Source: Trujillonella endophytica | Lineage (GTDB): Bacteria > Actinomycetota > Actinomycetes > Mycobacteriales > Geodermatophilaceae | Assembly: GCF_900110555.1 (NCBI RefSeq) | Contig: NZ_FOEE01000024.1 | Location: 1 to 35,262, forward strand | Direction of reading: 5' to 3' | Length of the DNA: 35,262 nt | In this document: one piece after another, positions 14,866 through 34,905 of the stretch | How the letters are laid out: each line of letters begins with the position of its first letter | Numbering within the stretch: the first letter of the stretch is position 1 | Made by a program: the position numbers and the translations under genes | The notes under the pieces: generated by a model | What the model saw: only the letters and a program-made list of their open reading frames with translations | What the model was told of the DNA's origin: nothing | Databases searched by the model: none

Positions 14866-14884
14866 GGTGGGGTGCAGTCCTCAG

Positions 14885-15352: not shown

Positions 15353-15354
15353 GG

Positions 15355-17999: not shown

Positions 18000-18572
18000 T
18001 CAGCGAGCGGCGACGATCTGGTCGTAGGTGGAGAAGCCGCGGGAGATGCCGCTGTCGGTGAAGCTGCCGACCCAGCCCTCGTCGTCGTGGAAGAAGCGCA
18101 CGGACACGTAGTCGGGGCTCGTGCCCATGTCGAACCAGTGCGTCGTGCCGCCGGGAACGGACAGCAGGTCACCGGCCTCGCACAGCACCGCGTGCACCTT
18201 GCCCTGCAGGCGCAGGTAGAAGATGCCGGACCCGGTGGCGAAGAAGCGGTCCTCGTCGTCGTCGTGGGTGTGCTCGTCGAGGAACTTCGCGCGGGCGGTG
18301 CGCACGGTCTCCGGCCACGACGGGTCGTCGCTGGGGTGCATCTGCACCACGTCGACGAGCGTGTAGCCCTCGGCGGCGGTCACGCCGTCGATGCGGTCGC
18401 GGTAGGCGTCCAGCACGTCGTCCTGGGTCGGCCGGTCGGGGAGCTCCTGCACCGGCCACTGCTCGAACCGGACGCCGAGCTCCTTGAGCACGACGGCGAT
18501 CTCCGCGGCGTCCTCGGTGCGCAGTTCGGGCGTGTCGGGGGCGTCCTCACGCCACACGGTGAGCAGGGTCAC
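18000..18572 (-). CDS. mtnD: Acireductone dioxygenase
   Basis: A 190-residue cupin of the acireductone dioxygenase family. With iron it converts acireductone and O2 to formate and 2-keto-4-methylthiobutyrate (KMTB), the methionine precursor. With nickel the family makes a non-productive product. Metal ligands are H101, H103 and E107 in EHTHDDDEDRFF, and H145 in GGTTHWFDMG. EAGDLLSVP and RFFHDDEGWVGSF are also family hallmarks. GTG start at 18572, with GAGGTGG five bases upstream. It stands alone, divergent from the ribose-type importer operon, and is the only core salvage enzyme outside the minus-strand operon at 24012-33398. Confidence 0.93.
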   Translation of the reverse strand: MTLLTVWREDAPDTPELRTEDAAEIAVVLKELGVRFEQWPVQELPDRPTQDDVLDAYRDRIDGVTAAEGYTLVDVVQMHPSDDPSWPETVRTARAKFLDEHTHDDDEDRFFATGSGIFYLRLQGKVHAVLCEAGDLLSVPGGTTHWFDMGTSPDYVSVRFFHDDEGWVGSFTDSGISRGFSTYDQIVAAR

Positions 18573-18595
18573 GGGTCCACCTCGATCATCGGATT

Positions 18596-18624
18596 TCCGG
18601 TTGTCCGGACGGAATCCCTACTAT
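18596..18624 (+). promoter_or_regulatory. Promoter with a dyad for the leader ORF and importer operon
   Basis: A good -10 element TACTAT (18619-18624) lies seven bases before a GTG (18632), predicting a leaderless transcript. At the -35 position is the dyad TCCGG-TTGT-CCGGA (18596-18609), a candidate repressor or activator site. It is also close to the divergent mtnD start, so it could control both directions. Confidence 0.55.
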
Positions 18625-18631
18625 TCCCCTC

Positions 18632-18775
18632 GTGATGGTCGCGGCGCCACCGACCTCCGGCAGCTCCGCTGTCGGAGCGCTGCGGCGCACCGTCAACGCC
18701 GCCGTGCACCCGGCGGTGTGTCCGGAGCTGTGTTGCATGCCGGGGTCCCGGGTCTCGCGTCCGCAGCACGCGTGA
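18632..18775 (+). CDS. Leaderless short ORF with a Cys-rich segment, putative sulfur-responsive leader peptide
   Basis: A 47-residue ORF beginning at GTG 18632, with an alternative ATG at 18635 and a possible short form from GTG 18704. A TACTAT -10 element seven bases upstream predicts that the mRNA starts at or next to the start codon. Near the end it encodes CPELCCM, that is three Cys and one Met within seven codons, two of the Cys codons being TGT, which is rare in such GC-rich DNA. Its stop (18773-18775) abuts a GC-rich hairpin (18776-18811). The downstream gene is a sulfur-salvage importer. Mycobacteria have leaderless polycysteine ORFs that act as cysteine-responsive attenuators; this fits that pattern but is inferred, and translation is not shown. 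Confidence 0.5.
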   Translation: MMVAAPPTSGSSAVGALRRTVNAAVHPAVCPELCCMPGSRVSRPQHA

Positions 18776-18811
18776 GGCCCCGGCGCGGCCGAGCCGCGCC
18801 GTCGTGGGGCC
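18776..18811 (+). promoter_or_regulatory. Hairpin directly after the leader ORF, possible attenuator
   Basis: GGCGCGGC and GCCGCGCC (18782-18789, 18793-18800) form a perfect 8-bp stem with a 3-nt loop. GGCCCC (18776-18781) can extend it by pairing with GGGGCC (18806-18811). The first base follows the leader ORF stop codon directly, so a ribosome at the stop would cover the left arm. No U-tract. A smaller GGGCC-GTCC-GGCCC hairpin (18844-18857) lies just before the Shine-Dalgarno of the next gene. Confidence 0.45.
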
Positions 18812-18878
18812 CACCTGGAGTGCGCCGCCCCGCTCCGCTCTCCGGGCCGTCCGGCCCACCGCTCCCGAAGGACCCCCC

Positions 18879-19982
18879 ATGCCCCGCTCCACCCGGTTCC
18901 CCCTGCTCGCCGGGACCGCCGTCTCGCTCCTCCTGCTCTCCGCATGCTCCCAGTCCGACGGCGACGACGGCGACTCGTCGGAGGCCGCGGCCCGCACCAC
19001 GCAGGCAGCCTCCGCCGACGCCCCCGCCCCCTTCTCCGACGGCCCGGTCGAGGTCGCGCTGGTCCGCCAGAGCGGCGCCGGCGACTACTTCGAGGCCTGG
19101 GGCCAGGGCGCCGAGGCCCAGGCCGAGGCGGCCGGGATCGAGCTGACCGTCACCGACGCCCGCAACGACAACGCCCGGCACGCCTCGGACCTGGAGCGGG
19201 CGATCGCCTCCGAGCCGGACGCGATCATCGTCGACCACGGGCAGACCGACACCATCGCCCCGCTGGTCCAGGAGGCCGTCGACGCCGGCATCCCGGTCGT
19301 CGTCTACGACCTCGAGCTGCCGCCGATCGAGGGCGTCGTGGTCACCAGCCAGAGCGACGCGAGCATGGCCGAGGGCGTGCTGGACCAGCTCGTCGCGGAC
19401 GTCGGCGACGGCGCCGCGGTGGGCTACGTGTCCGCCACCGGCTTCGCCCCGCTCGACCGCCGTGCCGAGGTCTGGGACACCTACGTCGCCGAGCACCAGC
19501 TCGACCAGCGGTTCTCCACCGGCGAGGTGACCGAGTCGACGGCGACCGACAACATCCCGCTGGTCGACGCCGCGCTCAAGCAGCACCCCGACGTGACCGC
19601 GATCTTCGCCCCGTACGACGAGATCGCGAAGGGCGCGGTCCAGGCGGTGCTCCAGAACGACCTGCAGGACGGCGTCCGGGTCTACGGCATCGACATCTCC
19701 AACGCCGACATCGAGGTGATGACCGCCGAGGGGAGCCCGTGGGTCGCCACCTCCGCCACCGACCCCACCCAGATCGGTGGCGCGGTCGTCCGCGTGGCCG
19801 CCCTGGAGCTGGCCGGTCAGCTGGAGGAGGACGCCGTCCAGTTCCCCGCCGTCACGGTGACGCAGGACTTCCTCCGGGACAACGACATCACCTCGGTCGC
19901 CGACCTGGTCGAGGCGGAGCCGTCGCTGCGCCTGGACGACGTCGCGGTGGCCGACTGGCTGCCGAACAACTCCGCGTCCTGA
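18879..19982 (+). CDS. Ribose-type ABC importer substrate-binding lipoprotein
   Basis: A 367-residue lipoprotein with a signal peptide and lipobox LLSAC (Cys near residue 23), then an acidic Ser/Ala linker and a periplasmic-binding-protein type 1 domain of the RbsB family (Peripla_BP_4). Motifs include VALVRQSGAGDYFEAWGQGA, DAIIVDHGQTDTIAPLVQEA and VFGIDISN-like VRVYGIDISNADIEVM. It captures a sugar-like ligand outside the membrane for the ATPase and permease that follow. The operon ends with an MTR kinase, so methylthioribose is the likely ligand; this is inferred from context. Start at ATG 18879 after GAAGGA. Confidence 0.9.
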   Translation: MPRSTRFPLLAGTAVSLLLLSACSQSDGDDGDSSEAAARTTQAASADAPAPFSDGPVEVALVRQSGAGDYFEAWGQGAEAQAEAAGIELTVTDARNDNARHASDLERAIASEPDAIIVDHGQTDTIAPLVQEAVDAGIPVVVYDLELPPIEGVVVTSQSDASMAEGVLDQLVADVGDGAAVGYVSATGFAPLDRRAEVWDTYVAEHQLDQRFSTGEVTESTATDNIPLVDAALKQHPDVTAIFAPYDEIAKGAVQAVLQNDLQDGVRVYGIDISNADIEVMTAEGSPWVATSATDPTQIGGAVVRVAALELAGQLEEDAVQFPAVTVTQDFLRDNDITSVADLVEAEPSLRLDDVAVADWLPNNSAS

Positions 19983-19999
19983 TCGGTCGGGGCCGGCAC

Positions 20000-21562
20000 A
20001 TGAGCACCGCGGCGGTGTCCCTGCGGGGGATCGGCATGTCCTTCGGGGCCCACCGGGTCCTCGACGGCGTCGACCTGGACATCGCCGCGGGCGAGGTGCT
20101 GGCCCTGCTCGGCGCCAACGGGGCCGGGAAGTCGACCCTGATCAAGGTCCTGTCGGGGGTCCACCCGGGCCACGACGGGACGATCCGGATCGAGGGCACG
20201 GAGCAGCGGATGGACTCGCCGCTCCGTGCCCGCCGGGCCGGCATCGCGACCGTGCACCAGCGGGTGCACGACGGGGTGGTCCCGGGGCTCACCGTCGCGG
20301 AGAACCTGGCCTTCGACGACCTCGCCCACCCGGCGCGCCGCGGCCCGTCCGCGGTGCTCCTGCGGCGGCGCGAGGTGCTGGCCGCCGCCCGGACCGCCGT
20401 CGAGGTGCTCGGCCTCGACTGGAGCGACGCCGTCCTGCGCCGCGACGTCGCCGAGCTCGGCATCTCCGACGCCCAGTTGCTGGTGCTCGCGCGGGCGCTG
20501 GTGCACCGGCCGCGGCTGCTCGTCCTGGACGAGCCGACGTCGGCGCTGTCGGCCGCGGAGGCCGACCGCCTGTTCGCGGTCGTCCGCGGCCAGCGGGCGG
20601 CCGGCCTCGCCGTCCTCTACGTCTCGCACCGGCTCGGCGAGGTCGACGCCCTCGCCGACCGGGCGGTGGTGCTGCGCGACGGCCGGGTCACCTCCGACAC
20701 CCGGGCGCCGTTCCGCTGGGACGTCGTCCTGCCGGCGATGCTCGGCGAGCGCGCCGCCGTGCACCCCGTCGGCCCCGACGGCATCGGCCCGCCGCCGCGG
20801 GAGCCGCTACCCGCAGGGGACGTCGCCGTCCGCCTGCGCGGGGTGCGGCTGCTCCCCCGCTCCCCCGCCCTGGATCTCGACCTGCACGCCGGCCAGGTCA
20901 CCGGCGTCGTCGGGCTGCTCGGCGCCGGCAAGTCCGAGCTCGCGCACGGCCTGTTCGGGTCGGCCTCGTGGGCCGGCGGGACGGCGGAGCTCGACGGCCG
21001 GCCGTTCGCCCCCCGCTCCCCCGCCGCCGCCGTCCGGGCCGGCGTCCACCTCGTCCCCGAGGACCGCGCCGGCCAAGCCCTGCTGCCCGGCTGGTCGATC
21101 GCCCGCACGCTGAGCCTGCCGTTCCTGCGCGAGCTGTCCCGCGGTGGCGTGGTCGACCGCGCCACCGAGGCCGACCGGGCCCGGACCGCGGTCGACCGCT
21201 TCGGCGTGGTGACCCGCAGCGAGAGCACCGACGTCGGCGAGCTCTCCGGCGGCAACCAGCAGAAGGTCGTCGTCGGCCGCTGGCTGGTGCCCGGCGTGCG
21301 GGTGCTGCTGCTGGACGAGCCGTTCCGCGGCGTCGACCTCGGCGCCCGCCGCGACATCGGCGGCCACGCCCGCGACGCCGCGCGCGCCGGTGCCGCGGTC
21401 GTCGTCCTCTCCGCCGACGTCGACGAGGTGCTGGAGGTCGCCGACCGCGTCCTCGTGCTCGTCGACGGCGCCGTCACCCTCGACGCCCCCGTCTCCGCCG
21501 TGCCGCGCGACGCGGTCGTCGCCGCCTTCTCCGCCACCTCCCCGGGAGGAACCCCCGCGTGA
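20000..21562 (+). CDS. Ribose-type ABC importer ATP-binding protein, two fused ATPase domains
   Basis: A 520-residue RbsA/MglA-type ATPase with two nucleotide-binding domains. Domain 1 has Walker A GANGAGKST and Walker B LLVLDEPTSAL, but its ABC signature reads ELGISDAQLL in place of LSGGQ. Domain 2 has Walker A GLLGAGKSE, signature LSGGNQQKVVVGRWL and Walker B VLLLDEPFRGVDLGAR. Degenerate signatures in one half are common in this family, so one site probably does most of the hydrolysis. ATG start 17 bases after the binding-protein gene. Its stop overlaps the permease GTG (GTGA). Confidence 0.92.
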   Translation: MSTAAVSLRGIGMSFGAHRVLDGVDLDIAAGEVLALLGANGAGKSTLIKVLSGVHPGHDGTIRIEGTEQRMDSPLRARRAGIATVHQRVHDGVVPGLTVAENLAFDDLAHPARRGPSAVLLRRREVLAAARTAVEVLGLDWSDAVLRRDVAELGISDAQLLVLARALVHRPRLLVLDEPTSALSAAEADRLFAVVRGQRAAGLAVLYVSHRLGEVDALADRAVVLRDGRVTSDTRAPFRWDVVLPAMLGERAAVHPVGPDGIGPPPREPLPAGDVAVRLRGVRLLPRSPALDLDLHAGQVTGVVGLLGAGKSELAHGLFGSASWAGGTAELDGRPFAPRSPAAAVRAGVHLVPEDRAGQALLPGWSIARTLSLPFLRELSRGGVVDRATEADRARTAVDRFGVVTRSESTDVGELSGGNQQKVVVGRWLVPGVRVLLLDEPFRGVDLGARRDIGGHARDAARAGAAVVVLSADVDEVLEVADRVLVLVDGAVTLDAPVSAVPRDAVVAAFSATSPGGTPA

Positions 21563-22671
21563 CCGACCCCCTGACGAAGCCGGCACCGACGCCGGCCCCG
21601 GCCCTCCCCGAGCCGGCCCCGCGCGCCTCCGCCGGCGCCCGGCTCGCCCCCGGCCTGGACCGGGCGCGCGAGCTGCTGGTCCGCTACGGGTTCATCGCCG
21701 TCACCGTGGCGCTGATCGCCTGGTTCGTGCTCAGCGAGCCCAACTTCCGCACCGCGGACAACCTCTACGGGCTGCTGGAGTACGCCGCACCGACCGCGAT
21801 CGCGGGGCTCGGCGTCACCATCGCGATGACCGTCGGCGGGCTGGACCTCTCGGTGGGTGCGGCCGCGGGCTTCGGCGTCTCCCTCGCCGCCTGGATGATG
21901 GTCGTGCAGAACCAGGTGGGCGGCGTCGCCATCGGCGCGGTCCTGCTCGGCGGCGCTTTGATCGGCCTGGTCAACGCCCTGCTGGTGGTGTGGGCCCGCA
22001 TCCCGGACCTGCTCGCCACCCTGACCACGATGTTCGCCGTCATGGGGCTCAAGCTCGTGCTCGTCGACGGCCGCTCCATCTCCTCCCGGATGACGCTGGA
22101 GGACGGCTCGACCGCCCCCGGCCGGTTCACCGACGACTTCCTGTGGCTGGCCCGGGGCGACATCGGACCGGTGCCCGTGCCCGCGGTGCTCCTGCTGCTC
22201 GTCGCCGTCGCCGTGTGGTTCCTCCTGGAGCGCACCCGCTACGGCCGGCTGTTCTACGCCGTCGGCGCCAACGCCGAGGCCGCCCGGCTCGCCGGCGTCC
22301 CCGTCGGCCTGTACCGCAGCGCGGCGTACGTGCTGTCCGGCGTGCTGGCCTCGGTCGCCGGCCTGCTGCTGGCCGCCCGCATCGGCCAGGGCGACGTGAG
22401 CGCCGGCAACTCGCTGCTGCTGGACGCCGTCGCCGTGGCCCTGGTCGGCACCTCGGTGCTGGGGCGCAACGTGCCCAACGCCTGGGGCACGGTCCTGGGC
22501 GCGGTGCTGGTGTCGGTGATGGTCGTCGGGTTCAGCATGAAGGGGCTGCCGTACTACGTGCAGGACGTCGCCAAGGGGGCCGTGCTGCTGGCCGCCCTGC
22601 TGTTCAGCTACACCCTGTCCCGCCGGCGCACCGCGCTGCCGGGCCAGCCCGCCGCCGGAGGTGCCGAGTGA
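21559..22671 (+). CDS. Ribose-type ABC importer permease
   Basis: A 370-residue RbsC-family (BPD_transp_2) permease with roughly ten membrane helices after a Pro/Ala-rich cytoplasmic N-terminus of about 40 residues. Family stretches are AIAGLGVTIAMTVGGLDLSVGA and YGRLFYAVGANAEAARLAGV, the latter being the ATPase-contacting loop. One gene only, so the channel is probably a homodimer. GTG start with GGAGGAA upstream, 4-bp overlap at each end (ATPase stop and kinase start), so translation is coupled through the operon. Confidence 0.92.
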   Translation: MTDPLTKPAPTPAPALPEPAPRASAGARLAPGLDRARELLVRYGFIAVTVALIAWFVLSEPNFRTADNLYGLLEYAAPTAIAGLGVTIAMTVGGLDLSVGAAAGFGVSLAAWMMVVQNQVGGVAIGAVLLGGALIGLVNALLVVWARIPDLLATLTTMFAVMGLKLVLVDGRSISSRMTLEDGSTAPGRFTDDFLWLARGDIGPVPVPAVLLLLVAVAVWFLLERTRYGRLFYAVGANAEAARLAGVPVGLYRSAAYVLSGVLASVAGLLLAARIGQGDVSAGNSLLLDAVAVALVGTSVLGRNVPNAWGTVLGAVLVSVMVVGFSMKGLPYYVQDVAKGAVLLAALLFSYTLSRRRTALPGQPAAGGAE

Positions 22672-23927: not shown

Positions 23928-23945
23928 GCGGGCCGCCGTCGTACG

Positions 23946-23982
23946 CCGGTGGCCCGGAAGCGGCACGGCTCCGGGCCACCGG
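23946..23982. terminator. Bidirectional terminator between the two salvage operons
   Basis: CCGGTGGCCCGGA and TCCGGGCCACCGG form a perfect 13-bp stem with an 11-nt loop between the convergent mtnK copy 1 and mtnB genes. It would serve both strands. Confidence 0.75.
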
Positions 23983-23990
23983 GGTACAGC

Positions 23991-24006: not shown

Positions 24007-24011
24007 CGGCG

Positions 24012-24674
24012 TCAGCGGGCGCCGACCGAGCCCCCCGGCCGCGTCTCGGACGCGAAGGTCATCAGGAACTCGACGATCTCCGTGTGGTGCCGGGCCTGCG
24101 TCAGGTCCCGGCCCCACGCGTACATGCCGTGCCGGGCCACGATGAACGCCGGCACCTGGCCGTCCCACCGCGGCTCCCAGGCCGCGGCGATCTCGTCCAT
24201 GTCCTGGCTGTTGGGGACGACGGGGATGGTCACCGTCTCGTCGTGGGCCTTCCGGCCGATGCCCTTGAGCATCTCCAGGTCCCGCAGCGGCAGGCCGTCG
24301 GGGTACCAGTGGCCGGCCAGGACCGCCGCCATGCAGTGCACGTGCACGATCGCGTCGGCTCCGGCGTGCGCGGCGATCCGGGCGTGCAGCGCGGCCTCGG
24401 CCGACGGCGGCAGGTCCGGGTTCGGCTGGTCGGGCACGGCCCGGCCCCGCTCGTCGACCACGACGACGTCGCCGCTGGTCAGCTCCCCCTTGTCCAGGCC
24501 GCTGACGGTCACCGCCAGCCGCAGCGGGTCGCGGGTGAGGACCACCGACAGGTTGCCGGAGGTGCCGCGCATCCAGCCCATCCCCGCAAAGCGCGCGGAC
24601 TCCGCGGCCAGCGCCCGCCCGGCGGCCTCCAGTGCGCTACGGGGGATGCCGCCCGCCTGCACCAGCCCGGTCAC
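24012..24674 (-). CDS. mtnB: Methylthioribulose-1-phosphate dehydratase
   Basis: A 220-residue class II aldolase-fold enzyme that dehydrates 5-methylthioribulose-1-phosphate to the diketo intermediate. It shows the phosphate and substrate motif MRGTSGNLSV (35-44), SAEAALH (91-97), zinc ligands H111 and H113 in HVHCMA, and H182 in ARHGMYAWG. The GTG start overlaps the mtnC stop by 4 bp (GTGA). It is the last gene of the long minus-strand salvage operon. Related aldolases (fuculose- or 5-deoxyribulose-phosphate type) share the fold, but mtnC directly before it and mtnD in the locus favour MtnB. Confidence 0.9.
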   Translation of the reverse strand: MTGLVQAGGIPRSALEAAGRALAAESARFAGMGWMRGTSGNLSVVLTRDPLRLAVTVSGLDKGELTSGDVVVVDERGRAVPDQPNPDLPPSAEAALHARIAAHAGADAIVHVHCMAAVLAGHWYPDGLPLRDLEMLKGIGRKAHDETVTIPVVPNSQDMDEIAAAWEPRWDGQVPAFIVARHGMYAWGRDLTQARHHTEIVEFLMTFASETRPGGSVGAR

Positions 24675-25390
24675 GGGGCCGCCACCACGTCGAGCTCGGT
24701 GAAGTCCGCGACGACCGGGACGTCGCCGAAGTCGGCGCCCGCGTTGGGCTCGCCGGCCCGCCGGACGCCGACGACCTGCCAGCCGGCCTCCCGGGCGGCG
24801 AACAGCTCGGCGGGCAGGTCGGAGAGGAACAGCAGCCGGCCCGGCTCGTCCCCGAGCGCGGCGGCGATCGCGTCGTAGGAGCCCGCCTCGCGCTTGGGGC
24901 CGGCCGTCACCGTGTCGAAGTAGTCGGTGACCAGCGGGGTGAGGTCCCCGGCGGGGGCGTGCCGGAACCACGGCACCTGGCTGGCGACCGAGCCCGAGGA
25001 GAACACCGCCAGCCGCACGCCGCGCTCGTGCCAGGCGCGCAGCCGGGGCACCACGTCGTCGAAGAAGTGCGAGGAGAGCTCTCCCGCGGCATACCCCGCG
25101 GCCCAGATCTGCCCCTGCAGCGTCTTGAGCGGGGTGGCCTTCACGTCGTCGTCCATCCAGCGGTGCAGCACGTCGACCACCTCGGCGGTGCCGGCGTCCT
25201 CGCGCAGCCCGCCCTCGTCCCGGGTCCGCGCCACCGCGCCGACCACGTCCGGGTCGTCGGCGTGGGTGTCGATCCAGGGCCCGAGCCGGGGCCGGGCGTA
25301 GTCGTAGAGGGTGCCGTGGACGTAGCCGGCGGCGCCGGTGGTGCCCTCGATGTCGAGGACGACGGTGCGCGCGATCAGGCTCAGGGTCAC
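24671..25390 (-). CDS. mtnC: Enolase-phosphatase E1 (2,3-diketo-5-methylthiopentyl-1-phosphate)
   Basis: A 239-residue HAD-superfamily enzyme that both enolises and dephosphorylates the diketo intermediate to acireductone. HAD motif I is VLDIEGTT (nucleophile D13, E15), motif II is SSGS (S131-S134), motif III lysine is K166 in GPKREAGSYD, and motif IV is LLFLSDL (D191). DIEGTT is diagnostic of MtnC. GTG start 11 bases after the mtnA stop. No strong Shine-Dalgarno sequence. TAGGCT, overlapping the mtnA stop, could by chance mimic a -10 element, but co-transcription with mtnA is more likely. Confidence 0.93.
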   Translation of the reverse strand: MTLSLIARTVVLDIEGTTGAAGYVHGTLYDYARPRLGPWIDTHADDPDVVGAVARTRDEGGLREDAGTAEVVDVLHRWMDDDVKATPLKTLQGQIWAAGYAAGELSSHFFDDVVPRLRAWHERGVRLAVFSSGSVASQVPWFRHAPAGDLTPLVTDYFDTVTAGPKREAGSYDAIAAALGDEPGRLLFLSDLPAELFAAREAGWQVVGVRRAGEPNAGADFGDVPVVADFTELDVVAAP

Positions 25391-25401
25391 GGGACGCCAG
25401 C

Positions 25402-26573: not shown

Positions 26574-27755
26574 TCAGCGCACCAGCGCGGCCACCGCAGC
26601 GGGATCGCCGAAGGCCGGCCGGTCCAGCAGCAGGGCGCGGGCGGCGCGCAGCACCACCGCGCTCGCCGGCCCAGGGTCGGGCAGCGTCTCCAGGTCCGCG
26701 GCGTGCGAGTAGCCGGCCACCCGGCGGACCATCTCGACGGCGGCGAACCCGAGGGTGTCGTCCCACACCGACGCCAGTTGGCGGGACAGCCAGGCGTCGT
26801 CGAGGAAGCGGTCGGCCCGGCCGGGCCAGCCGGCCTGCCAGGCGGCCGTGAACGCCTCCCACAGGACGGCGGCCTGGCCGGCCCGGTCGGCGGCCTCGGC
26901 GCGGTCGCCCAGGGCCGCGCTGCGGGCGGCGGCGACCAGGGCGTTGGCCAGGTACAGCCCGAGGTCCAGGCCGATCGGGCCGACGACGGCGAACTCCGGG
27001 TCGATGACCCGCACCACGGCGGCGCCGTCCCGCTCCCCCACCATCACGCTGCCGGAGTGCAGGTCGCCGTGCACCAGCGCCTCGGCCCTGGACGCGAAGG
27101 CCCAGCGCAGCGCCGACACCTCGGTGCGCACCGCCGGGTCGGCCCGCAGCGCGGCCACCTCGGCGTCCAGCAGCGGGTGGTGGCGGTTGGCGTCGGAGGC
27201 GCCGAACGGCTCGGACAGCAGGTACTGCTCGGTGACGGCGGCGAGGACCGGGTTGACCGAGGCGGCGAGCAGCGCGGCGCGGTCGGCCGCCGTCGCGCCG
27301 GCCGCGCTGGTGGCGAAGGTGACCCGGCCGACGAGGTCGCCGACCTGGCGGGAGGTGTCGCCGAAGCCGGCGCCGTCGACCAGCGCGGTGCGCAGGACGG
27401 TGAGGTCGGAGAGGTCCTCCATCGTGAAGGCGAAGCGGCCCGGGTCGACGTCGAGCACGCGCGGCGTCTGCTCGGGGGCGAACCGGGCGAAGGTGGCCAG
27501 CGCCCGCGCCTCGACCATGGCCCGCTCGGGGCTCATCGGCGCCGAGGGCCCCAGGGCACGGATCCACGGCGGCGCCTGCTTCACCGCCAGTCCCCGCGTG
27601 GCGCCGGCGGGGACGGCGACGAACACCCGGTTCATGTTGCCGTCGCCGACCTCGCGCACGGTGCCCGAGCTCCCGTCCGGGGCCAGGCCGCGGGCGACCA
27701 GGTAGGCCCAGACGTCGCCGGGCTCGAGCACCCCGGCGGCAGCCGGGCCGGTCAC
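26574..27755 (-). CDS. mtnK: S-methyl-5-thioribose kinase, copy 2 (nucleoside-type importer operon)
   Basis: A 393-residue MtnK-family kinase. It has the Gly-rich loop EVGDGNMNRVF (about 35-45), K59 in LAVKQAPP, the catalytic loop HGDLHSGS (H229, D231) and the metal segment IDPEFAVVGPIGLDLGLYLAN, the classical MtnK form. It differs clearly from copy 1 in the plus-strand operon, so the pair is not a recent duplication. GTG start overlaps the nucleoside hydrolase stop by 4 bp. Placed between a nucleoside hydrolase and MtnA, it would phosphorylate MTR released inside the cell. Confidence 0.92.
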   Translation of the reverse strand: MTGPAAAGVLEPGDVWAYLVARGLAPDGSSGTVREVGDGNMNRVFVAVPAGATRGLAVKQAPPWIRALGPSAPMSPERAMVEARALATFARFAPEQTPRVLDVDPGRFAFTMEDLSDLTVLRTALVDGAGFGDTSRQVGDLVGRVTFATSAAGATAADRAALLAASVNPVLAAVTEQYLLSEPFGASDANRHHPLLDAEVAALRADPAVRTEVSALRWAFASRAEALVHGDLHSGSVMVGERDGAAVVRVIDPEFAVVGPIGLDLGLYLANALVAAARSAALGDRAEAADRAGQAAVLWEAFTAAWQAGWPGRADRFLDDAWLSRQLASVWDDTLGFAAVEMVRRVAGYSHAADLETLPDPGPASAVVLRAARALLLDRPAFGDPAAVAALVR

Positions 27756-28741
27756 CGGACGCCGGCCAGGCGGCCCACGAAGTCGGCGAGGAAGCCGGCC
27801 GCGTCCACCCCGGTGACGACCGTCGTGGCCGGGGCGGTGCGCGCCTCCTCCTGGGCGAAGGGCACGGGCAGGCCGTCGGCGGTCTGCAGCAGGTGGGCGC
27901 GGGCCAGCAGCCCGTCGGGCACGACCGCGACCGGCCCGTCGATCGAGGCGGTGATCCAGCGGGGCTCGACGAGCAGCCCGGCGGTCAGGCCGTCCCAGGC
28001 CGGGGAGATCCGCCGGCCCCACGCGTACTGGTAGAAGTCCATGTAGGACTCCAGGACCGCGGCGCAGAACTCCCCCACCGGGTCGCCGCTGCGGTGCAGC
28101 GCCTGCACCGCGGCCTCGTCGACGATGGTCTGCGCGCCCGCGTTGACCCCCACCATGACCAGCTCGCTGCGCGGCGCGGCGAACACCGCCCGCGCGGCCG
28201 CCGGGTCGTTGGCGATGTTCGCGTCGACGGTCTGGGTGACGCCCACCGGCGGGAACGGCCCGGAGCCGCCCATCAGCACCGTGGAGCGGAACTTCGTCAG
28301 CACCAGCGGGTCCAGCTCGAGGGCGAGGGCGAGGTTGCTCAGCGGGCCCAGTGGCAGCAGGTCGTACTCCCCCGGGGCCGAGTCGGCCAGCTCCACCAGG
28401 TACTCCGCGGAGGTCGGGCCCACGACGGCCGGCGTCGTCCGCTGCAGCCCGAGGTCGCCCAGGCCGTCGATGCCGTGCACGTAGGAGGCGATGTGCGCCG
28501 GCCGCCCGTCGACGGGGCCCGGCGCGCCCGCGGCGACCGGCACGTCCGGCAGCCCGGCCAGGGCCAGCACGTGGCCGATGTTGCGCAGCGCGTCGTCGAC
28601 CGAGCAGTTGCCGTAGACGGACGTGACGGCGCTGATCTCGACGTCGGGCCGGCGGGCCAGCCACAGCAGGGCCAGCGCGTCGTCGATGCCGGTGTCGGTG
28701 TCGACGACGACCCGGCGCGGCGCGGGGTGGTGCTCGGTCAA
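27752..28741 (-). CDS. Nucleoside hydrolase (inosine-uridine preferring family), candidate MTA nucleosidase
   Basis: A 329-residue nucleoside hydrolase that breaks the N-glycosidic bond of a nucleoside. The calcium-binding signature DTDTGIDDA (D14, D16, D20, D21) is intact, with VLMGGSG and NIANDPAAARAVF further on. The start is a TTG (28739-28741) that overlaps the permease stop by 4 bp and has GAGGAG five bases upstream. No methylthioadenosine phosphorylase or nucleosidase gene is in the window, and this gene sits between a nucleoside-type importer and an MTR kinase. A methylthioadenosine-cleaving role is therefore the natural inference. General purine salvage is the alternative. Confidence 0.88.
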   Translation of the reverse strand: MTEHHPAPRRVVVDTDTGIDDALALLWLARRPDVEISAVTSVYGNCSVDDALRNIGHVLALAGLPDVPVAAGAPGPVDGRPAHIASYVHGIDGLGDLGLQRTTPAVVGPTSAEYLVELADSAPGEYDLLPLGPLSNLALALELDPLVLTKFRSTVLMGGSGPFPPVGVTQTVDANIANDPAAARAVFAAPRSELVMVGVNAGAQTIVDEAAVQALHRSGDPVGEFCAAVLESYMDFYQYAWGRRISPAWDGLTAGLLVEPRWITASIDGPVAVVPDGLLARAHLLQTADGLPVPFAQEEARTAPATTVVTGVDAAGFLADFVGRLAGVR

Positions 28742-29697
28742 CGGGGCTCCTCGGGGTGCAGGGCGGTCTCGGGGTGGGCGGCGCTCTCGGCGGCGACCGG
28801 GTCCGCGGCGCGCAGGCGGCGCCGGACGCGGATCCGGGAGAGCACGAGGACCACCAGGGTGACCAGGTAGGGGGCGGCGTCGGTGAGCTGCTGGGGCAGG
28901 CCGATGCCCTGCAGCCGGAAGCCCCAGGCCTCCGCGGCGCCGAACAGCAGGCAGGCACCGAGGACCCACAGCGGGCGGCTGACGGCCAGCATCACCGCAG
29001 CGACGGCCACCCAGCCGCGCCCGGCGGTCATGTTCTCGGTGAAGGCGGTGACCGTGCCCAGCGACAGCTGCGCGCCGCCCAGCCCGCACAGCGCGCCGGC
29101 GACGACCACCGTCGCCATCTGGTAGCGCGTCACCGGCACGCCCAGGCTGGTCGCGGCCTCGGGGTGCTCCCCCACCCCGCGCAGCCGCAGACCGATGGAG
29201 GTGCGGGCCAGCCACAACGACAGGACGACGGCCAGCACGAGCGCCAGGGGCACCAGCACGGTGGCGCGGCCGAGGACGGGGCCGAGGACCGGGACGCCGT
29301 CGAGCACGTCGAGGTCCGGCAGCCCGGGCAGGCCCGCCGGGGCGAAGGTGCCGGTGGCGCCGAGCGCCTCCCGCATCACGAAGCCGGTCAGCCCCAGGGC
29401 CAGCAGGTTCATCCCGACGGCGACGATGATCGGGTCGGCCCGGAAGGCGACGGCCCCGACCGCGAGGACCAGGCTGAACACCGCGGTGGCCGCGACCGCG
29501 GCGAGCACGCCCAGCCAGGGGTTGCCGCTCCACCAGCTGACCGCCACCGCGGTGAAGGCGCCCCACAGCAGCTGGCCCTCGAGCGCGATGTTGAAGACGC
29601 CGGCCCGGCCGCAGAGGGCGCCGCCGAGGGCGGCGTAGAGCACCGGCGCGGCCGAGGTGAGGACGGCGGCGACGAAGGCCAGGTTGAGGACGTCCAC
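28738..29697 (-). CDS. BMP-type nucleoside ABC importer, second permease
   Basis: A 319-residue BPD_transp_2-family permease, about 8-9 membrane helices, of the nucleoside (YufQ/BmpG-like) type. Characteristic is GRAGVFNIALEGQLLWGAF near residue 30 and RTSIGLRLRGVGEHPEAATSLGV, the ATPase-contacting loop. The start was chosen at GTG 29697, one base after the upstream stop, with GGGAGGG as Shine-Dalgarno. The frame is open to another GTG at 29712. It overlaps the nucleoside hydrolase start by 4 bp. It forms a heterodimeric channel with the next upstream gene. Confidence 0.91.
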   Translation of the reverse strand: MDVLNLAFVAAVLTSAAPVLYAALGGALCGRAGVFNIALEGQLLWGAFTAVAVSWWSGNPWLGVLAAVAATAVFSLVLAVGAVAFRADPIIVAVGMNLLALGLTGFVMREALGATGTFAPAGLPGLPDLDVLDGVPVLGPVLGRATVLVPLALVLAVVLSLWLARTSIGLRLRGVGEHPEAATSLGVPVTRYQMATVVVAGALCGLGGAQLSLGTVTAFTENMTAGRGWVAVAAVMLAVSRPLWVLGACLLFGAAEAWGFRLQGIGLPQQLTDAAPYLVTLVVLVLSRIRVRRRLRAADPVAAESAAHPETALHPEEPR

Positions 29698-29698
29698 G

Positions 29699-30769: not shown

Positions 30770-32355
30770 CGCTCCCCTCCCCCGCTCGCACTCCCGGCCG
30801 GGCTCCCGGCCCGGCCCGCCTGCACCATCGCCGCGCCCAGCACCTCCTCGGTGGCCTCGGCCGCGTCCAGCTCCGCCGTCACCGCGCCGTCCAGCATCAC
30901 CAGCACCCGGTCGGCCAGCGCCCGCAGCTCGGTGATCTCGTAGGACACCAGCAGCACCGCGCCGCCGCGGCTGCGGACGTCGAGCAGCAGCCGGTGGATC
31001 TCCTCGCCGGCGCCGACGTCCACGCCCTGGGTGGGCTGCTCGACCACGAGCAGGGGCGCCTCGTGGTGCAGCTCGCGGGCCAGCACCACCTTCTGCGCGT
31101 TGCCACCCGACAGCGAGCTCACCGGCACGGCGACACCGGCGGTCTTCACGCCGAGGCGGCGGACCAGCTCGGCGGCCTGCGCGCGCAGCGCCCGGGGGGA
31201 GAGGCGGCCCCGGCGGCCGATCGGCGGCGTGCGGTGGTGCCCCAGCGCCAGGTTGTCGGCGACGGACAGGCTCGCGGCCGTCCCCATCCCCTGGCGGTCC
31301 TCGGGCACGTACGCGATGCCGAGCCGGCGGCGCTCCCGGACGCCGAGGCCGGCCAGGTCCCGGCCGTGCAGCCGGACGCCACCGGACTCGGGTCGGCGCA
31401 GGCCGACGACGGCCTCCACCAGCTCGCGCTGGCCGTTCCCCGAGACGCCGGCGATGCCGACCACCTCGCCGGCGGAGACCCGCAGCGAGACGTCCTGCAC
31501 CCGGCTCGCGCCGGGCGCGGCCGGCATCCGCAGGCCGTCGACCTCCAGCACCGGATCGCCGCGGACGGCGCCGCGGGGGTTGACGGCCGGGACCAGCCCG
31601 CGGCCGATCATCGCCTCGACGATCTCGCCGGCGGTGGTCTGCGCGGTGGTCAGCCGCGCGGTCACGACGCCGTCGCGCAGCACGGTCACCCGGTCGGTCA
31701 CCTCGAGCACCTCGCGGACCTTGTGGGTGACCAGCGCGACCGTCGTCCCCTGCTCGGCCATCCGGCGGACGACGACGAACAGCGAGTCGACCTCGCCGGG
31801 AGTGAGCACCGCGGTCGGCTCGTCGAGGATGAGCACCTCCGCCCGGCGGTGCAGGGCCTTCAGGATCTCCACCCGCTGGCGGACGCCGAGCGGCAGCGTG
31901 TCCACGCGGGCGGTGGGGTCGACGTCCAGGCCGATGCGGGCCGACAGCTCCGCCACCCGCTCCTGCGCGGCCCGCCGGTCCAGCACGCCGAAGCGGGCCG
32001 GCTCCGCGCGGTAGACGACGTTCTCGGCCACGGTCAGCGAGCCGAAGAGCCGGAAGTGCTGGTGCACCATCCCCAGCCCCGCGGCGATGGCGTCCAGCGG
32101 TGAGCCCAGCCGCACCTCGCGGCCGTCGCGCAGCACCTGTCCCGCGTCGGGCCGGTGCAGGCCGTAGAGCACCGACATCAGGGTGGACTTGCCCGCACCG
32201 TTCTCGCCGACGACGGCGTGCACGGTGCCGCGCTCGAGCGCCAGGTCGACCCCGTCGACGGCGAGCACGGGGCCGAAGCGCTTGGTGATGCCACGCAGCT
32301 CGGCCGCGGGGGGAGCACCCCCCGCGGCCGAGCCGACTGCCGTGCTACCGGTCAT
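30766..32355 (-). CDS. BMP-type nucleoside ABC importer ATP-binding protein
   Basis: A 529-residue double ATPase of the YufO/BmpE type. Domain 1 has Walker A GENGAGKST, signature LPLGVRQRVEILKAL and Walker B LILDEPTAVLTP. Domain 2 has a degenerate Walker A (GVSGNGQRE, no Lys-Ser/Thr), signature LSGGNAQKVVLARELH, and VVEQPTQGVDVGA, as is usual for this family. ATG at 32355 overlaps the binding-protein stop by 4 bp. A longer frame upstream is antisense-like noise inside the binding-protein gene. Confidence 0.93.
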   Translation of the reverse strand: MTGSTAVGSAAGGAPPAAELRGITKRFGPVLAVDGVDLALERGTVHAVVGENGAGKSTLMSVLYGLHRPDAGQVLRDGREVRLGSPLDAIAAGLGMVHQHFRLFGSLTVAENVVYRAEPARFGVLDRRAAQERVAELSARIGLDVDPTARVDTLPLGVRQRVEILKALHRRAEVLILDEPTAVLTPGEVDSLFVVVRRMAEQGTTVALVTHKVREVLEVTDRVTVLRDGVVTARLTTAQTTAGEIVEAMIGRGLVPAVNPRGAVRGDPVLEVDGLRMPAAPGASRVQDVSLRVSAGEVVGIAGVSGNGQRELVEAVVGLRRPESGGVRLHGRDLAGLGVRERRRLGIAYVPEDRQGMGTAASLSVADNLALGHHRTPPIGRRGRLSPRALRAQAAELVRRLGVKTAGVAVPVSSLSGGNAQKVVLARELHHEAPLLVVEQPTQGVDVGAGEEIHRLLLDVRSRGGAVLLVSYEITELRALADRVLVMLDGAVTAELDAAEATEEVLGAAMVQAGRAGSPAGSASGGGER

Positions 32356-33398
32356 CCAGCGGCCGGGTCGTCCACGGTGATCGTGCCGTCGATGATCTCC
32401 TGCCGGATCTGCTCCAGCTGCTCGATGACGTCGGGCCGGTCGGCGATCAGGCAGCCGGAGTCGGCGACGTCGTCCTCGAACGCCGTGAGGCCGACGCCGT
32501 CCTCGGCGAGGCCGTAGACCTGCGAGCCACCGGTGTCGCCGTCGAGGATCGCCGTCACGGACTCGGCGAGGGCGACGTCGACGTTCTTGGTCACGTTGTC
32601 CACGACCTGGCCGGGGGCCGAGGCGCACTCGTTGACGTCCACGCCGTAGGCCTGGAAGCCGCCGGCCGCCGCCACCTCGAATGCGCCGACGTTGCTGCCG
32701 GAGGCCGCCAGCAGCACCTGGTCCGCGCCGCCGTCGGCGAGCACCTGCGCCTGGGCACCGCCGCGGGCCGGGTCACCGAAGGGGTTGTCGCCGCCCACGA
32801 ACAGCGGGGTGGAGGTCGCGGCCGGGTTCACGCTCTGGGCGCCGGCCAGGAAGGGGTCCACCCAGCGGCGGATGAAGGGCGTGTCCAGCGCGGCGACGAC
32901 GCCGATCCGCCCGGTCTCGGTGAGCAGCCCGGCCTCGACGCCGGCCAGGTAGGTGGCCTCGTGCTCGCGGAACGCGGCGCAGGTGACGTTGTCCGGCTGC
33001 GGGTCGGGGCAGCCGTCGACGAGCAGGAACTGCTGGTCGGGGTTGTCGACGGGGACGGTCGCGAACGCGTCCTGCAGCGAGAAGGTGAGCCCGATGACGA
33101 TGTCGGGCTGCTCCCGGACGGCCGCCTCGACGTTCTGCTGGATGGAGGTCGGGTCGGTGCTCTCGTAGACCTCGAGCTCCAGGCCCCGCTCCTCTGCGAC
33201 GCGCTCGGCGCCCTCGATCGCGAGGGAGAGGAAGTTGTTCCCGCCCACCGGGTTGGGGGTGATCACGATGATCGAGCCGGCGGAGTCCCCGCCGTCACCT
33301 CCACCGGAGTCGCTGTCGGCACAGGCCGTGAGGCCGGCGAGGACGGCGAGCGCGACGGCGGGGAGCCGCCCCCGGCGACGGCGGTGGACGGAGTTCAT
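32352..33398 (-). CDS. BMP-family (basic membrane protein) substrate-binding lipoprotein
   Basis: A 348-residue lipoprotein: a basic N-terminus, a hydrophobic stretch, lipobox LTAC (Cys near residue 23), an Asp/Gly/Ser linker, then a BMP/PnrA-like periplasmic binding domain of the kind that binds nucleosides. Pieces are REQPDIVIGLTFSLQDAF, HEATYLAGVEAGLLTETGRIGVV and GFQAYGVDVNECA. It is the first gene of the nine-gene minus-strand operon. A riboswitch precedes it, so the whole set should respond to S-adenosylmethionine. ATG 33398 has GGGAG six bases upstream. Ligand unknown; methylthioadenosine or another adenosine-like nucleoside is likely from context. Confidence 0.92.
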   Translation of the reverse strand: MNSVHRRRRGRLPAVALAVLAGLTACADSDSGGGDGGDSAGSIIVITPNPVGGNNFLSLAIEGAERVAEERGLELEVYESTDPTSIQQNVEAAVREQPDIVIGLTFSLQDAFATVPVDNPDQQFLLVDGCPDPQPDNVTCAAFREHEATYLAGVEAGLLTETGRIGVVAALDTPFIRRWVDPFLAGAQSVNPAATSTPLFVGGDNPFGDPARGGAQAQVLADGGADQVLLAASGSNVGAFEVAAAGGFQAYGVDVNECASAPGQVVDNVTKNVDVALAESVTAILDGDTGGSQVYGLAEDGVGLTAFEDDVADSGCLIADRPDVIEQLEQIRQEIIDGTITVDDPAAG

Positions 33399-33499
33399 CG
33401 GTTCTCCCAGGGAGCGGGCGCGGGATGCGCGCGTGGTCGGGCGACACCGCGACCGGTCCGGCCGGAGCGGGATCCGGTCCACCCCGACATCCTCGGCCT

Positions 33500-33601
33500 C
33501 GCCGGGACGCAGTGCCCACGTCTGGTCGTCCCCCGGAGCAGCCCACGACGCCGGAGGGTTGCCGGCCAGCGAGCCGGGGCTTCGTGCTGGCACTCAGGAC
33601 C
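33500..33601 (-). promoter_or_regulatory. SAM-IV riboswitch controlling the nucleoside-importer salvage operon
   Basis: On the minus strand the RNA begins GGUCCUGAGUGCCAGC, followed by AAGCCCCGGCU, GCUGGCCGGCAACCCUCC and, further on, CUCCGGGGGACGACC. This order and these sequences match the SAM-IV aptamer consensus as I remember it: P1 (GGUC with GACC), P2 (CCAGC with GCUGG), and the GGCAACC core. SAM-IV is found in actinobacteria upstream of sulfur genes and binds S-adenosylmethionine. About 100 nt follow before the BMP gene and could hold the expression platform; CTCCC lies next to the Shine-Dalgarno GGGAG. The rest of the 331-bp gap (33614-33729) shows no gene. The 3' limit is approximate. 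Confidence 0.85.
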
Positions 33602-33607
33602 GCCCAG

Positions 33608-33613
33608 AACGTA
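33608..33613 (-). promoter_or_regulatory. Candidate -10 element for the SAM-IV controlled operon
   Basis: TACGTT fits TANNNT and ends seven bases before the first G of the riboswitch (33601), so transcription would begin right at the aptamer. No clear -35 hexamer is seen 17 bp upstream. Confidence 0.5.
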
Positions 33614-33729
33614 CACGCGGCGCCCGCGCGGCCGGCGCGGCCCCGGATGCCGTCCGTCCCGCCCGCTGGAACGCTGGTTCACCCAGTGGGACGGGCGACC
33701 CGCGGGCGGCCCGGTGGGAGACTGGCGGC

Positions 33730-34905
33730 GTGACGCTCCAGCGAGCCGCCCTCACCCCTCGGATGCGGCCCTTCACGACGACGGTCTTCGCCGAGATGTC
33801 GGCCCTGGCCGCCCGGACCGGCGCCATCAACCTCGGGCAGGGCTTCCCGGACACCGACGGGCCGTCGTCCCTGCTCGAGGACGCCGTGGCCGCCATCCGC
33901 GGCGGCGCCAACCAGTACCCGCCGGGGCCGGGGGTGCGGGAGCTGCGCGAGGCCGTCGCCGCCCACCAGGAGCGCTTCTACGGCCTGCGGACCGACCCCG
34001 ACGACGTCCTGGTGACCGTCGGCGCCACCGAGGCGATCACCGCCGCCGTCCTGGCGCTCACCGAGCCCGGCGACGAGGTCGTGACCTTCGAGCCCTACTA
34101 CGACGGCTACGCCGCGGCGGTCGCGCTGGCCGGGGCGGCCCGTCGCACGGTGGTGCTGCGCTCCCCCGGCTTCGCCGTCGACGAGGCCGCGCTGCGGGCG
34201 GCGTTCACCCCGCGCACCCGGCTGGTGCTGCTCAACAGCCCGCACAACCCGACCGGCAAGGTGTTCACCCGCGCCGAGCTGGAACTGGTGGCGCGGCTGG
34301 CGGCCGAGCACGACGCCGTGGTGATCTCCGACGAGGTCTACGAGCACATGACCTACGGGGTGCCGCACGTGCCGATCGCGACGCTGCCCGGGATGGCCGA
34401 GCGGACGCTGACGATCTCCTCGGCGGGCAAGACCTTCTCGGTGACCGGCTGGAAGGTCGGCTGGGTGCACGGCCCGACCGAGCTGGTGGCCGCCGTCCGG
34501 GCGGTCAAGCAGTTCCTCACGTTCGTGGGCAGCGGGCCGTTCCAACCCGCCGTGGCCCGTGCGCTGGCGCTGCCCGACGAGTACTTCGACGGGCTGCGGG
34601 CCGGTCTCGAGCGCAAGCGGGACCTGCTCATGACCGGCCTGGACGCGGCCGGCTTCGCGGTGAACCGGCCCGACGGCACCTACTTCGTCACGGCCGACGC
34701 CGCGCCGCTGGGCTACACCGACGCCATGGCGCTGTGCTGGGACCTGCCGGAGCTGGCCGGCGTGGTCGGCGTCCCGGTGGGGGTCTTCCACGACGACCCG
34801 GAGGCCGCCCCCTCGCTGGTCCGGTTCGCCTTCTGCAAGCAGGACGCCGTCCTGGGCGAGGCCGTCGACCGGCTCGCGGCGCTCGGCGCCCGCCTCGCGG
34901 GCTGA
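33730..34905 (+). CDS. Class I PLP-dependent aminotransferase, candidate for the last step of methionine salvage
   Basis: A 391-residue fold-type I aminotransferase of the kynurenine/methionine aminotransferase subgroup. INLGQGFPDTDGP, NQYPPGPG, the NSPHNPTGK stretch, ISDEVYEH and the PLP lysine K234 in SSAGKTFSVTGWKVGW are present. Members of this subgroup (for example E. coli YbdL) prefer methionine-like substrates. KMTB to methionine is the step after MtnD, and no other aminotransferase is in the locus, so this is a good MtnE-type candidate. N-succinyldiaminopimelate or kynurenine aminotransferase activity are alternatives. GTG start 33730, with GGGAGA eight bases upstream. It is divergent from the riboswitch operon. 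Confidence 0.85.
   Translation: MTLQRAALTPRMRPFTTTVFAEMSALAARTGAINLGQGFPDTDGPSSLLEDAVAAIRGGANQYPPGPGVRELREAVAAHQERFYGLRTDPDDVLVTVGATEAITAAVLALTEPGDEVVTFEPYYDGYAAAVALAGAARRTVVLRSPGFAVDEAALRAAFTPRTRLVLLNSPHNPTGKVFTRAELELVARLAAEHDAVVISDEVYEHMTYGVPHVPIATLPGMAERTLTISSAGKTFSVTGWKVGWVHGPTELVAAVRAVKQFLTFVGSGPFQPAVARALALPDEYFDGLRAGLERKRDLLMTGLDAAGFAVNRPDGTYFVTADAAPLGYTDAMALCWDLPELAGVVGVPVGVFHDDPEAAPSLVRFAFCKQDAVLGEAVDRLAALGARLAG

What the first reader, a model, noticed from the sequence alone, without database searches (positions are those of the whole stretch)
18000..34905. Methionine-salvage locus with two importers and two methylthioribose kinases
Seen: a ribose-type ABC importer followed by MtnK (plus strand), and a BMP/nucleoside-type ABC importer followed by nucleoside hydrolase, a second divergent MtnK, MtnA, MtnC and MtnB (minus strand), with MtnD and an aminotransferase alongside. 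Known: MtnK-A-B-C-D and an aminotransferase turn MTR into methionine. Inferred: one importer takes MTR and the other takes MTA (or a related nucleoside), which the hydrolase splits, giving a scavenging system for sulfur nucleosides lost by other organisms. The pairing of each importer with its own kinase is the unusual point.
Basis: partly seen in the sequence, partly recalled or inferred. Interest (0 to 1): 0.85.

Follow-up and report, generated by a model that had tools for sequence, protein, structure and literature searches.

The report
Riboswitch-linked methylthioadenosine and methylthioribose scavenging locus
A soil actinobacterium carries a gene island that appears to import two sulfur-containing waste molecules (methylthioribose and, probably, methylthioadenosine) and turn them back into methionine, using a reshaped nucleoside-splitting enzyme in a role where other bacteria use an unrelated one.

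Summary
At 18000-34905 lie a ribose-type (CUT2) importer with MtnK1 (plus strand) and a BMP importer, IU-family nucleoside hydrolase (NH), MtnK2, MtnA, MtnC and MtnB (minus strand), with MtnD and an aminotransferase. Both kinases pass the MTR-kinase cut-off. New evidence: (1) the CUT2 binding protein's closest solved relative is titled a 5-methylthioribose transporter binding protein (4RY8). (3) The genome's only PNP_UDP_1 protein is a purine nucleoside phosphorylase, so neither MtnN nor MtnP was found. (4) The two residues that bind the substrate's 5'-OH are changed (Asn to Gly, Glu to Asp) in 27 of 27 aligned close NHs; 31 of 31 control IU-NHs keep them. Best reading: a scavenging island in which this NH is an MTA hydrolase feeding MTR kinase. 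The claimed unusual point, one kinase per importer, is only partly right: MtnK1 adjoins the CUT2 importer in 19 of 20 cases, yet 9 relatives have both importers and one kinase. The BMP ligand and NH activity remain untested.

The parts
18000..18572 (-). MtnD, acireductone dioxygenase
   Evidence: Pfam ARD 89.8 bits, cut-off 27; no NCBIfam match
18879..19982 (+). CUT2 substrate-binding lipoprotein, predicted 5-methylthioribose binder
   Evidence: Best PDB match 4ry8_A, 198.3 bits alone, 305.1 bits as 11-row profile; Foldseek ranks 1-3, 37% identity, title names a 5-methylthioribose transporter SBP
20000..21562 (+). CUT2 importer ATPase (two ABC domains)
   Evidence: AraG/RbsA-type matches below equivalog cut-offs; Pfam ABC_tran, 2 stretches
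21559..22671 (+). CUT2 importer permease
   Evidence: Pfam BPD_transp_2 134.2 bits
22668..23927 (+). MtnK1, methylthioribose kinase overlapping the CUT2 permease gene by 4 bases
   Evidence: TIGR01767 329.5 bits, cut-off 275; K1 clade
24012..24674 (-). MtnB, methylthioribulose-1-phosphate dehydratase
   Evidence: TIGR03328 167.2 bits, cut-off 137.05
24671..25390 (-). MtnC, acireductone synthase (enolase-phosphatase)
   Evidence: TIGR01691 210.6 bits, cut-off 128.1
25402..26475 (-). MtnA, methylthioribose-1-phosphate isomerase (divergent)
   Evidence: TIGR00512 200.3 bits, below cut-off 279; only PF01008 match in the genome
26574..27755 (-). MtnK2, second methylthioribose kinase, overlaps the NH gene by 4 bases
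   Evidence: TIGR01767 309.1 bits, cut-off 275; K2 clade
27752..28741 (-). IU-family nucleoside hydrolase with altered 5' pocket (G167, D173), predicted MTA hydrolase
   Evidence: PF01156 196.7 bits; residues invariant in 27 of 27 aligned relatives; 31 of 31 controls have Asn and Glu there
28738..29697 (-). BMP importer permease 1
   Evidence: BPD_transp_2 118.9 bits
29699..30769 (-). BMP importer permease 2
   Evidence: BPD_transp_2 90.9 bits
30766..32355 (-). BMP importer ATPase (two ABC domains)
   Evidence: ABC_tran, 2 stretches; best NCBIfam match putative B6 ABC ATPase 438.6 bits, below cut-off 670
32352..33398 (-). BMP/PnrA-type substrate-binding lipoprotein, predicted MTA binder (ligand inferred from context)
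   Evidence: PF02608 130.7 bits; nearest solved chain 7x0r
33511..33601 (-). SAM-IV riboswitch aptamer upstream of the BMP operon
   Evidence: RF00634 59.9 bits, gathering 38; same place in L047, L048, L049, L082
33730..34905 (+). Class I/II aminotransferase, plausible last step (MtnE role)
   Evidence: NF005855 596.3 bits, cut-off 553, a general PLP aminotransferase model

Best explanation
The island is a two-entry scavenging system for sulfur-bearing leftovers of S-adenosylmethionine. Entry 1: a CUT2 importer brings in 5-methylthioribose (MTR), which MtnK1, whose gene overlaps the permease gene, phosphorylates. Entry 2: a BMP-type importer brings in 5'-methylthioadenosine (MTA); an IU-family nucleoside hydrolase, whose pocket has lost its two 5'-hydroxyl ligands, splits MTA to adenine and MTR, and MtnK2 phosphorylates the MTR. 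Both streams join at MTR-1-phosphate and go through MtnA, MtnB, MtnC, MtnD and an aminotransferase to methionine. The BMP operon is led by a SAM-IV riboswitch, so it should be on when SAM is low. Because neither MtnN nor MtnP was found in the genome, the hydrolase should also recycle the cell's own MTA. Shown here: gene content, homology, riboswitch match, conservation, residue changes, no MtnN/MtnP found. Inferred: all ligands, enzyme activities, direction of regulation.
For: Binding protein 1 is closest to 4RY8, titled a 5-methylthioribose transporter SBP, by sequence and fold. Both kinases pass the MTR-kinase cut-off. SAM-IV riboswitch before the BMP gene in 5 of 5 Geodermatophilaceae loci examined. 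BMP importer beside the NH in 17 of 18 loci where the NH has mtn neighbours (exception L069) and in 0 of the 9 other loci of the alignment. Own genome: one PF01048 match, a purine nucleoside phosphorylase over cut-off, MTAP far below. The O5' ligands Asn and Glu (RihA Asn158, Glu164; PMC2898832 passage) are Gly and Asp in 27 of 27 aligned relatives and intact in 31 of 31 controls; in a survey all 19 NH ligand complexes had the 5' side chain hydrogen-bonded (PMC12648331 passage). The Tyr pair said to be needed for purines (PMC8910321 passage) is at 233 and 237.
Against: No biochemical data. The BMP protein's ligand was not predicted from sequence. 13 of 13 NH-mtn loci searched outside Geodermatophilaceae show no SAM riboswitch at the gathering score. 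11 of 16 NH-bearing genomes also have MtnP, so there the NH is not the sole MTA enzyme. The altered pocket also occurs in 9 NH loci without mtn neighbours. MtnA scores below its cut-offs. The 31 controls are best Pfam scorers plus the host's paralogue, so they lean to canonical enzymes. The scan that found the relatives used the words ESYMDFY and VVVDTDTG; the first holds the Tyr pair, so its conservation is partly built in. A second IU-NH exists in the genome.
Confidence: 0.72

Rival explanations
1. The BMP importer and hydrolase serve ordinary purine nucleosides (adenosine, inosine); they share the locus for adenine or ribose supply and have no special role for MTA.
For: Nearest solved relatives of the hydrolase are general nucleoside hydrolases such as ZmNRh2b and ZmNRh3; the BMP protein's ligand is not predicted and its relatives include nucleoside binders (recalled).
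Against: Both 5'-OH ligands are changed in 27 of 27 aligned relatives and kept in 31 of 31 controls including the host's own second IU-NH; hydrolase gene overlaps MtnK2 by 4 bases; SAM-IV leader; BMP importer found with the NH in 17 of 18 mtn-linked loci and 0 of 9 unlinked.
Confidence: 0.15
2. The locus is a carbon-scavenging route for 5'-deoxyadenosine and 5-deoxyribose (DHAP shunt, DrdK/DrdI/DrdA type), with methionine salvage secondary.
For: DrdK of Bacillus thuringiensis uses 5-deoxyribose and MTR about equally, and some drd clusters have putative sugar transporters (PMC6079011 passages). The changed 5' pocket would suit 5'-deoxyadenosine too. MtnA is divergent.
Against: MtnB passes the dehydratase cut-off while fuculose-phosphate aldolase models score far below theirs; MtnC and MtnD are present; SAM-IV leader. 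A separate aldolase in the genome was not searched for.
Confidence: 0.1
3. Two kinases and two importers are simple redundancy: two overlapping salvage cassettes met by horizontal transfer and the two kinases do the same job. (Not exclusive with the best explanation: it concerns the kinases only.)
For: MTR kinase over cut-off in 2 of 96 family genomes and 12 of 298 order genomes; 12 of 16 NH-bearing genomes have one full-length kinase; L047 and L049 show MtnK2 without the CUT2 cassette.
Against: MtnK1-clade genes adjoin the CUT2 importer in 19 of 20 rows and MtnK2-clade genes in 0 of 10, and the clades are separate in the tree.
Confidence: 0.4

Closest known systems
Methionine salvage pathway with predicted MTR importer MtrACB/MtnXYZ (Bacillus cereus, enterobacteria)
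   Same: MtnK, A, B, C, D plus a sugar-type MTR ABC importer under SAM-responsive control (PMC3228920 and PMC4239095, passages)
   Different: Here a second, BMP-type importer and an IU-NH are added, there are two kinases, and no MtnN was found
Tlet_1677 5-methylthioribose transporter binding protein (PDB 4RY8)
   Same: Closest solved relative of the plus-strand binding protein, 37% identity
   Different: Thermotoga protein; nothing was checked here about its neighbouring genes, and the ligand part of the title was cut off in the listing
Bacillus subtilis MTR influx transporter MtrA (YfnA)
   Same: A transporter of MTR, reported as experimentally authenticated (PMC5743806 passage; its appendix was not seen)
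   Different: Not compared here by sequence; the window has ABC importers
Group I IU/CU nucleoside hydrolases (RihA, YeiK, CfNH, plant NRH)
   Same: Fold, calcium-binding aspartates, loop His, nucleophile Asn, Tyr pair
   Different: Asn and Glu that bind the 5'-OH are Gly and Asp; in the five aligned Geodermatophilaceae rows the His before the last calcium Asp is Trp, as in group II (PMC8910321 passage)
5-deoxyribose disposal / DHAP shunt (DrdK-DrdI-DrdA; E. coli mtnK-mtnA-ald2)
   Same: Shares kinase and isomerase families, and a transporter gene in some clusters (PMC6079011, PMC12632272, passages)
   Different: Here MtnB, C, D and a SAM riboswitch point to methionine
SAM-IV riboswitch of Actinomycetales
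   Same: RF00634 match over gathering score
   Different: Target named in the passage read is metXY (PMC4239095); here it leads a salvage and import operon

Membership tests
Methionine salvage pathway | MtnK, MtnB, MtnC at or above curated cut-offs | tested here: met
Methionine salvage pathway | MtnA at or above equivalog cut-off | tested here: inconclusive
   TIGR00512 200.3 against 279; PRK05720 248.9 against 271; only PF01008 match in the genome
Methionine salvage pathway | MtnD (ARD family) | tested here: met
   Pfam ARD over cut-off; no NCBIfam match
Methionine salvage pathway | MTA-cleaving MtnN or MtnP (both of PF01048, recalled for MtnN) | tested here: not met
   Only PF01048 match is a purine nucleoside phosphorylase; MTAP 81.2 bits against 274.85
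CUT2 methylthioribose importer | Binding protein closest to a protein titled MTR transporter SBP | tested here: met
   4ry8 first
CUT2 methylthioribose importer | Binds MTR | not testable with these tools
   needs a binding assay
BMP/PnrA nucleoside importer | BMP domain lipoprotein with ATPase and two permeases | tested here: met
BMP/PnrA nucleoside importer | Ligand is a nucleoside, here MTA | not testable with these tools
   no residue test was made for the pocket
IU-type nucleoside hydrolase | DxDxxxDD calcium motif and distal Asp | tested here: met
   D14, D16, D20, D21, D250
IU-type nucleoside hydrolase | Asn and Glu binding the 5'-OH | tested here: not met
   G167 and D173; roles from PMC2898832 (passage)
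SAM-IV riboswitch | Covariance model match over gathering score | tested here: met
   59.9 bits against 38
5-deoxyribose disposal (Drd/DHAP shunt) | Class II aldolase in place of MtnB dehydratase in the cluster | tested here: not met
   TIGR03328 MtnB over cut-off; L-fuculose-phosphate aldolase models far below theirs; rest of genome not searched

The most novel reading that the evidence does not exclude
This hydrolase founds a subfamily of IU-type nucleoside hydrolases that has given up 5'-hydroxyl recognition to become a dedicated MTA (and 5'-deoxyadenosine) hydrolase, an evolutionarily separate replacement for MtnN/MtnP, and it is fed by a dedicated MTA importer of BMP type, the first I know of, under a SAM riboswitch.
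Probability: 0.6. Interest if true: 0.65.

Novelty: new variant of a known kind. Interest (0 to 1): 0.55.

Why it matters
MTA and MTR are excreted or leaked by some organisms (E. coli exports MTR; PMC6302742 and PMC3228920 passages). If the reading holds, it gives a genetic marker for bacteria that harvest them, names a candidate MTA importer, and shows a second evolutionary origin for MTA cleavage. It would break the rule, stated in a 2022 review (PMC8910321, passage), that nucleoside hydrolases so far characterised are strict for an intact ribose; the 5' pocket change gives a direct, testable explanation.

Tried and rejected
Rejected: importer and kinase pairs as a fixed rule. Rejected as general: the Trp before the last calcium Asp as a purine signature, since among the aligned enzymes only the Geodermatophilaceae rows have it. 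Rejected: replacement of MtnP by the hydrolase in every genome, since 11 of 16 NH-bearing genomes have MtnP over cut-off. No SAM riboswitch was found before the CUT2 operon (one far sub-threshold match to another family, ignored). Neighbours of hydrolases without mtn genes showed no common theme in what was scanned: 10 proteins from 5 of the 9 loci. PF01048 matches in those 9 genomes were listed but not sorted into subfamilies, so no claim is made. The empty-site question (was the island inserted into a chemotaxis cluster?) could not be answered. No search was made for an aldolase elsewhere in the genome, nor a pocket analysis of the BMP protein. Papers: the ten searches listed no title or abstract start on an IU-NH that splits MTA or on a BMP-type MTA importer; some searches showed 15 of 25, 15 of 41 and 10 of 18 papers; of the papers opened only the passages found were seen.

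None of these required other odds.
Full report
Setting. The window is bases 1-35262 of contig C22 of a 4.87 Mb, 99.64% complete genome, 75% G+C. The same-family genome G120 has a contig of the same length (983,271) and the same MtnK as Blastococcus haudaquaticus DSM 44270 (L040 and L049), so the host is in the Geodermatophilaceae, in another genus (g1 against g7).

Observation. The minus-strand block reads BMP lipoprotein, ATPase, two permeases, NH, MtnK2, MtnA, MtnC, MtnB, with four-base overlaps at BMP/ATPase, ATPase/permease, permease/NH, NH/MtnK2 and MtnC/MtnB; only MtnK2 and MtnA are more than 11 bases apart (98 bases), so it looks like one operon (coordinates). The plus-strand block reads lipoprotein, ATPase, permease, MtnK1, with four-base overlaps at ATPase/permease and permease/MtnK1.

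Riboswitch. A SAM-IV aptamer (59.9 bits, gathering 38) lies at 33601-33511, 112 bases before the BMP start codon. It stands in the same place in all five Geodermatophilaceae loci examined: window, L047, L048, L049, L082. It was not found at the gathering score in 13 of 13 NH-mtn loci of other groups (L050-L053, L055-L061, L063, L064); L069 was not searched. A SAM-sensing leader argues for a sulfur role of the BMP importer, hydrolase and MtnK2 in this family.

Importer 1. The plus-strand binding protein has 4ry8_A as best solved relative (198.3 bits; 305.1 bits with an 11-row profile). With an AlphaFold2 model (mean pLDDT 77.6) Foldseek ranks three 4ry8 chains first, 37% identity; the title, cut in the listing, begins 'Crystal structure of 5-methylthioribose transporter solute binding protein TLET_1677'. 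A predicted MTR ABC importer is described for Bacillus cereus and enterobacteria (PMC3228920 passages; PMC4239095 passages), so this half is a known kind.

Importer 2 and hydrolase. One scan of the species-genome collection (84,980 species by the tool's description) gave 37 loci. The 26 with at least about 45% identity over 290 or more residues were aligned with the window enzyme, 27 rows in all (A2); L073-L083 were left out. By tblastn with window proteins, 18 of the 27 have mtn genes within the fetched stretch and nine do not (L054, L062, L065-L068, L070-L072). The BMP importer is beside the hydrolase in 17 of the 18 (not L069) and in none of the nine. L082, whose contig ends inside the hydrolase gene, also has the importer.

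Residue test. In RihA the inhibitor's O5' is held by Asn158 and Glu164, and the attacking water by Asp10 and Asn166 (PMC2898832 passage). By alignment (the match to RihA numbering is my reading) these are G167, D173 and N175 in the window enzyme. All three are invariant in 27 of 27 rows. In 31 of 31 control IU-NHs from the same order, including the host's own second IU-NH (L113), they are Asn, Glu and Asn. The controls are the 30 loci returned as best Pfam matches plus L113, so they lean to canonical enzymes. Of ten further IU-NHs of the scan (L073-L081, L083), nine were aligned: one has Asn and Glu, eight have Asp and Asp. A review says CfNH turns over nucleosides lacking the 2', 3' or 5' hydroxyl very slowly, calls strict ribose specificity common to all isozymes so far characterised, and says two Tyr in helix 8 are needed for efficient purine hydrolysis (PMC8910321 passages). 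The window enzyme has Tyr at 233 and 237, which by the alignment match YeiK 223 and 227 (my reading). The second Tyr is kept in 26 of 27 rows (Ser in L069), but one search word, ESYMDFY, contains both Tyr. Four of 31 control rows (L115, L117, L134, L144) also have both Tyr, so the pair alone is not special. The AlphaFold2 model (pLDDT 93.5) is closest to plant ZmNRh2b and ZmNRh3.

Pathway gap. The host has one PF01048 match, a purine nucleoside phosphorylase over cut-off (TIGR01698 316.8 against 302.6). So no MtnN or MtnP was found. A single PF01048 match is usual in the family (73 of 96 genomes by my count; their subfamilies were not tested), and only 2 of 96 have an MTR kinase over cut-off, so the lack is no sign by itself that the hydrolase displaced anything. 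MtnP over cut-off is in 15 of 20 genomes checked: 11 NH-bearing genomes and the four f13 genomes that have both kinases but no NH in the fetched stretches. It is below cut-off in the host, G120, the Naasia MAG, Jiangella and the Modestobacter MAG; Naasia and Jiangella have four and five PF01048 matches, so MtnN is not excluded there.

Kinases. A 33-row tree puts MtnK1 and MtnK2 in separate supported clades (20 rows, 97/94; 10 rows, 100/99); the tool warned of long branches, among them L051's second kinase. MtnK1-clade genes adjoin the CUT2 importer in 19 of 20 rows (not L063). MtnK2-clade genes follow the hydrolase in 6 of 10 rows, two of which are the same genome, and head an mtnKACB run without hydrolase in the four f13 genomes. 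Of 16 NH-bearing genomes searched, 12 have one full-length MTR kinase, three have two (host, Jiangella, and the Naasia MAG, whose second scores 251.8, below cut-off) and one MAG has none. Of the 12, one is G120 with MtnK2; of the other 11, nine have both importers in the fetched stretch and nine have a kinase placed in the MtnK1 clade; L059's kinase was not examined and L053's was cut by the end of the stretch. L047 and L048 were not held and not searched genome-wide. So the pairing is real for MtnK1 but not obligatory for the BMP module.

Conclusion. The best reading is a modular MTA/MTR scavenging island. MTR uptake is a known kind. The new part is a hydrolase subfamily with an altered 5' pocket, linked to a nucleoside-type importer and, in this family, a SAM riboswitch: most likely an MTA hydrolase. 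No binding or enzyme data exist here, and the substrate of the BMP importer is inferred from context alone.

Noticed in passing
window 10098-17769 and 34942-35262: The island lies between chemotaxis genes (response regulator, CheX, CheR, CheB, CheA on one side, the end of a chemoreceptor on the other); Blastococcus endophyticus L047 has matching flanks, in B. haudaquaticus L049 no chemoreceptor or CheA match was found.
   Followed up: partly
L074-L081: Microbacteriaceae-type IU-NHs with Asp at both 5' pocket positions and Asn before the last calcium Asp, a further non-canonical group.
   Followed up: no
window 27752-28741: The His before the last calcium Asp is Trp only in the Geodermatophilaceae rows, a mix of group I and group II hydrolase features.
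   Followed up: partly
L062 1229-2173: A hydrolase of the same altered-pocket group in a Red Sea MAG labelled Acidiferrobacteraceae, 54% identical.
   Followed up: no
L033, L034, L036, L038/L039: Four genomes of one other family carry both kinase lineages and the CUT2 importer without the BMP/NH module in the fetched stretches; two (L033, L038) have a cobalamin riboswitch about 4 kb before the MtnK2 run.
   Followed up: partly
window 25402-26475: MtnA is a divergent form below both family cut-offs, though similar genes recur in the related clusters.
   Followed up: no
window 188-5143: A large NAD-specific glutamate dehydrogenase lies at the left end of the window.
   Followed up: no
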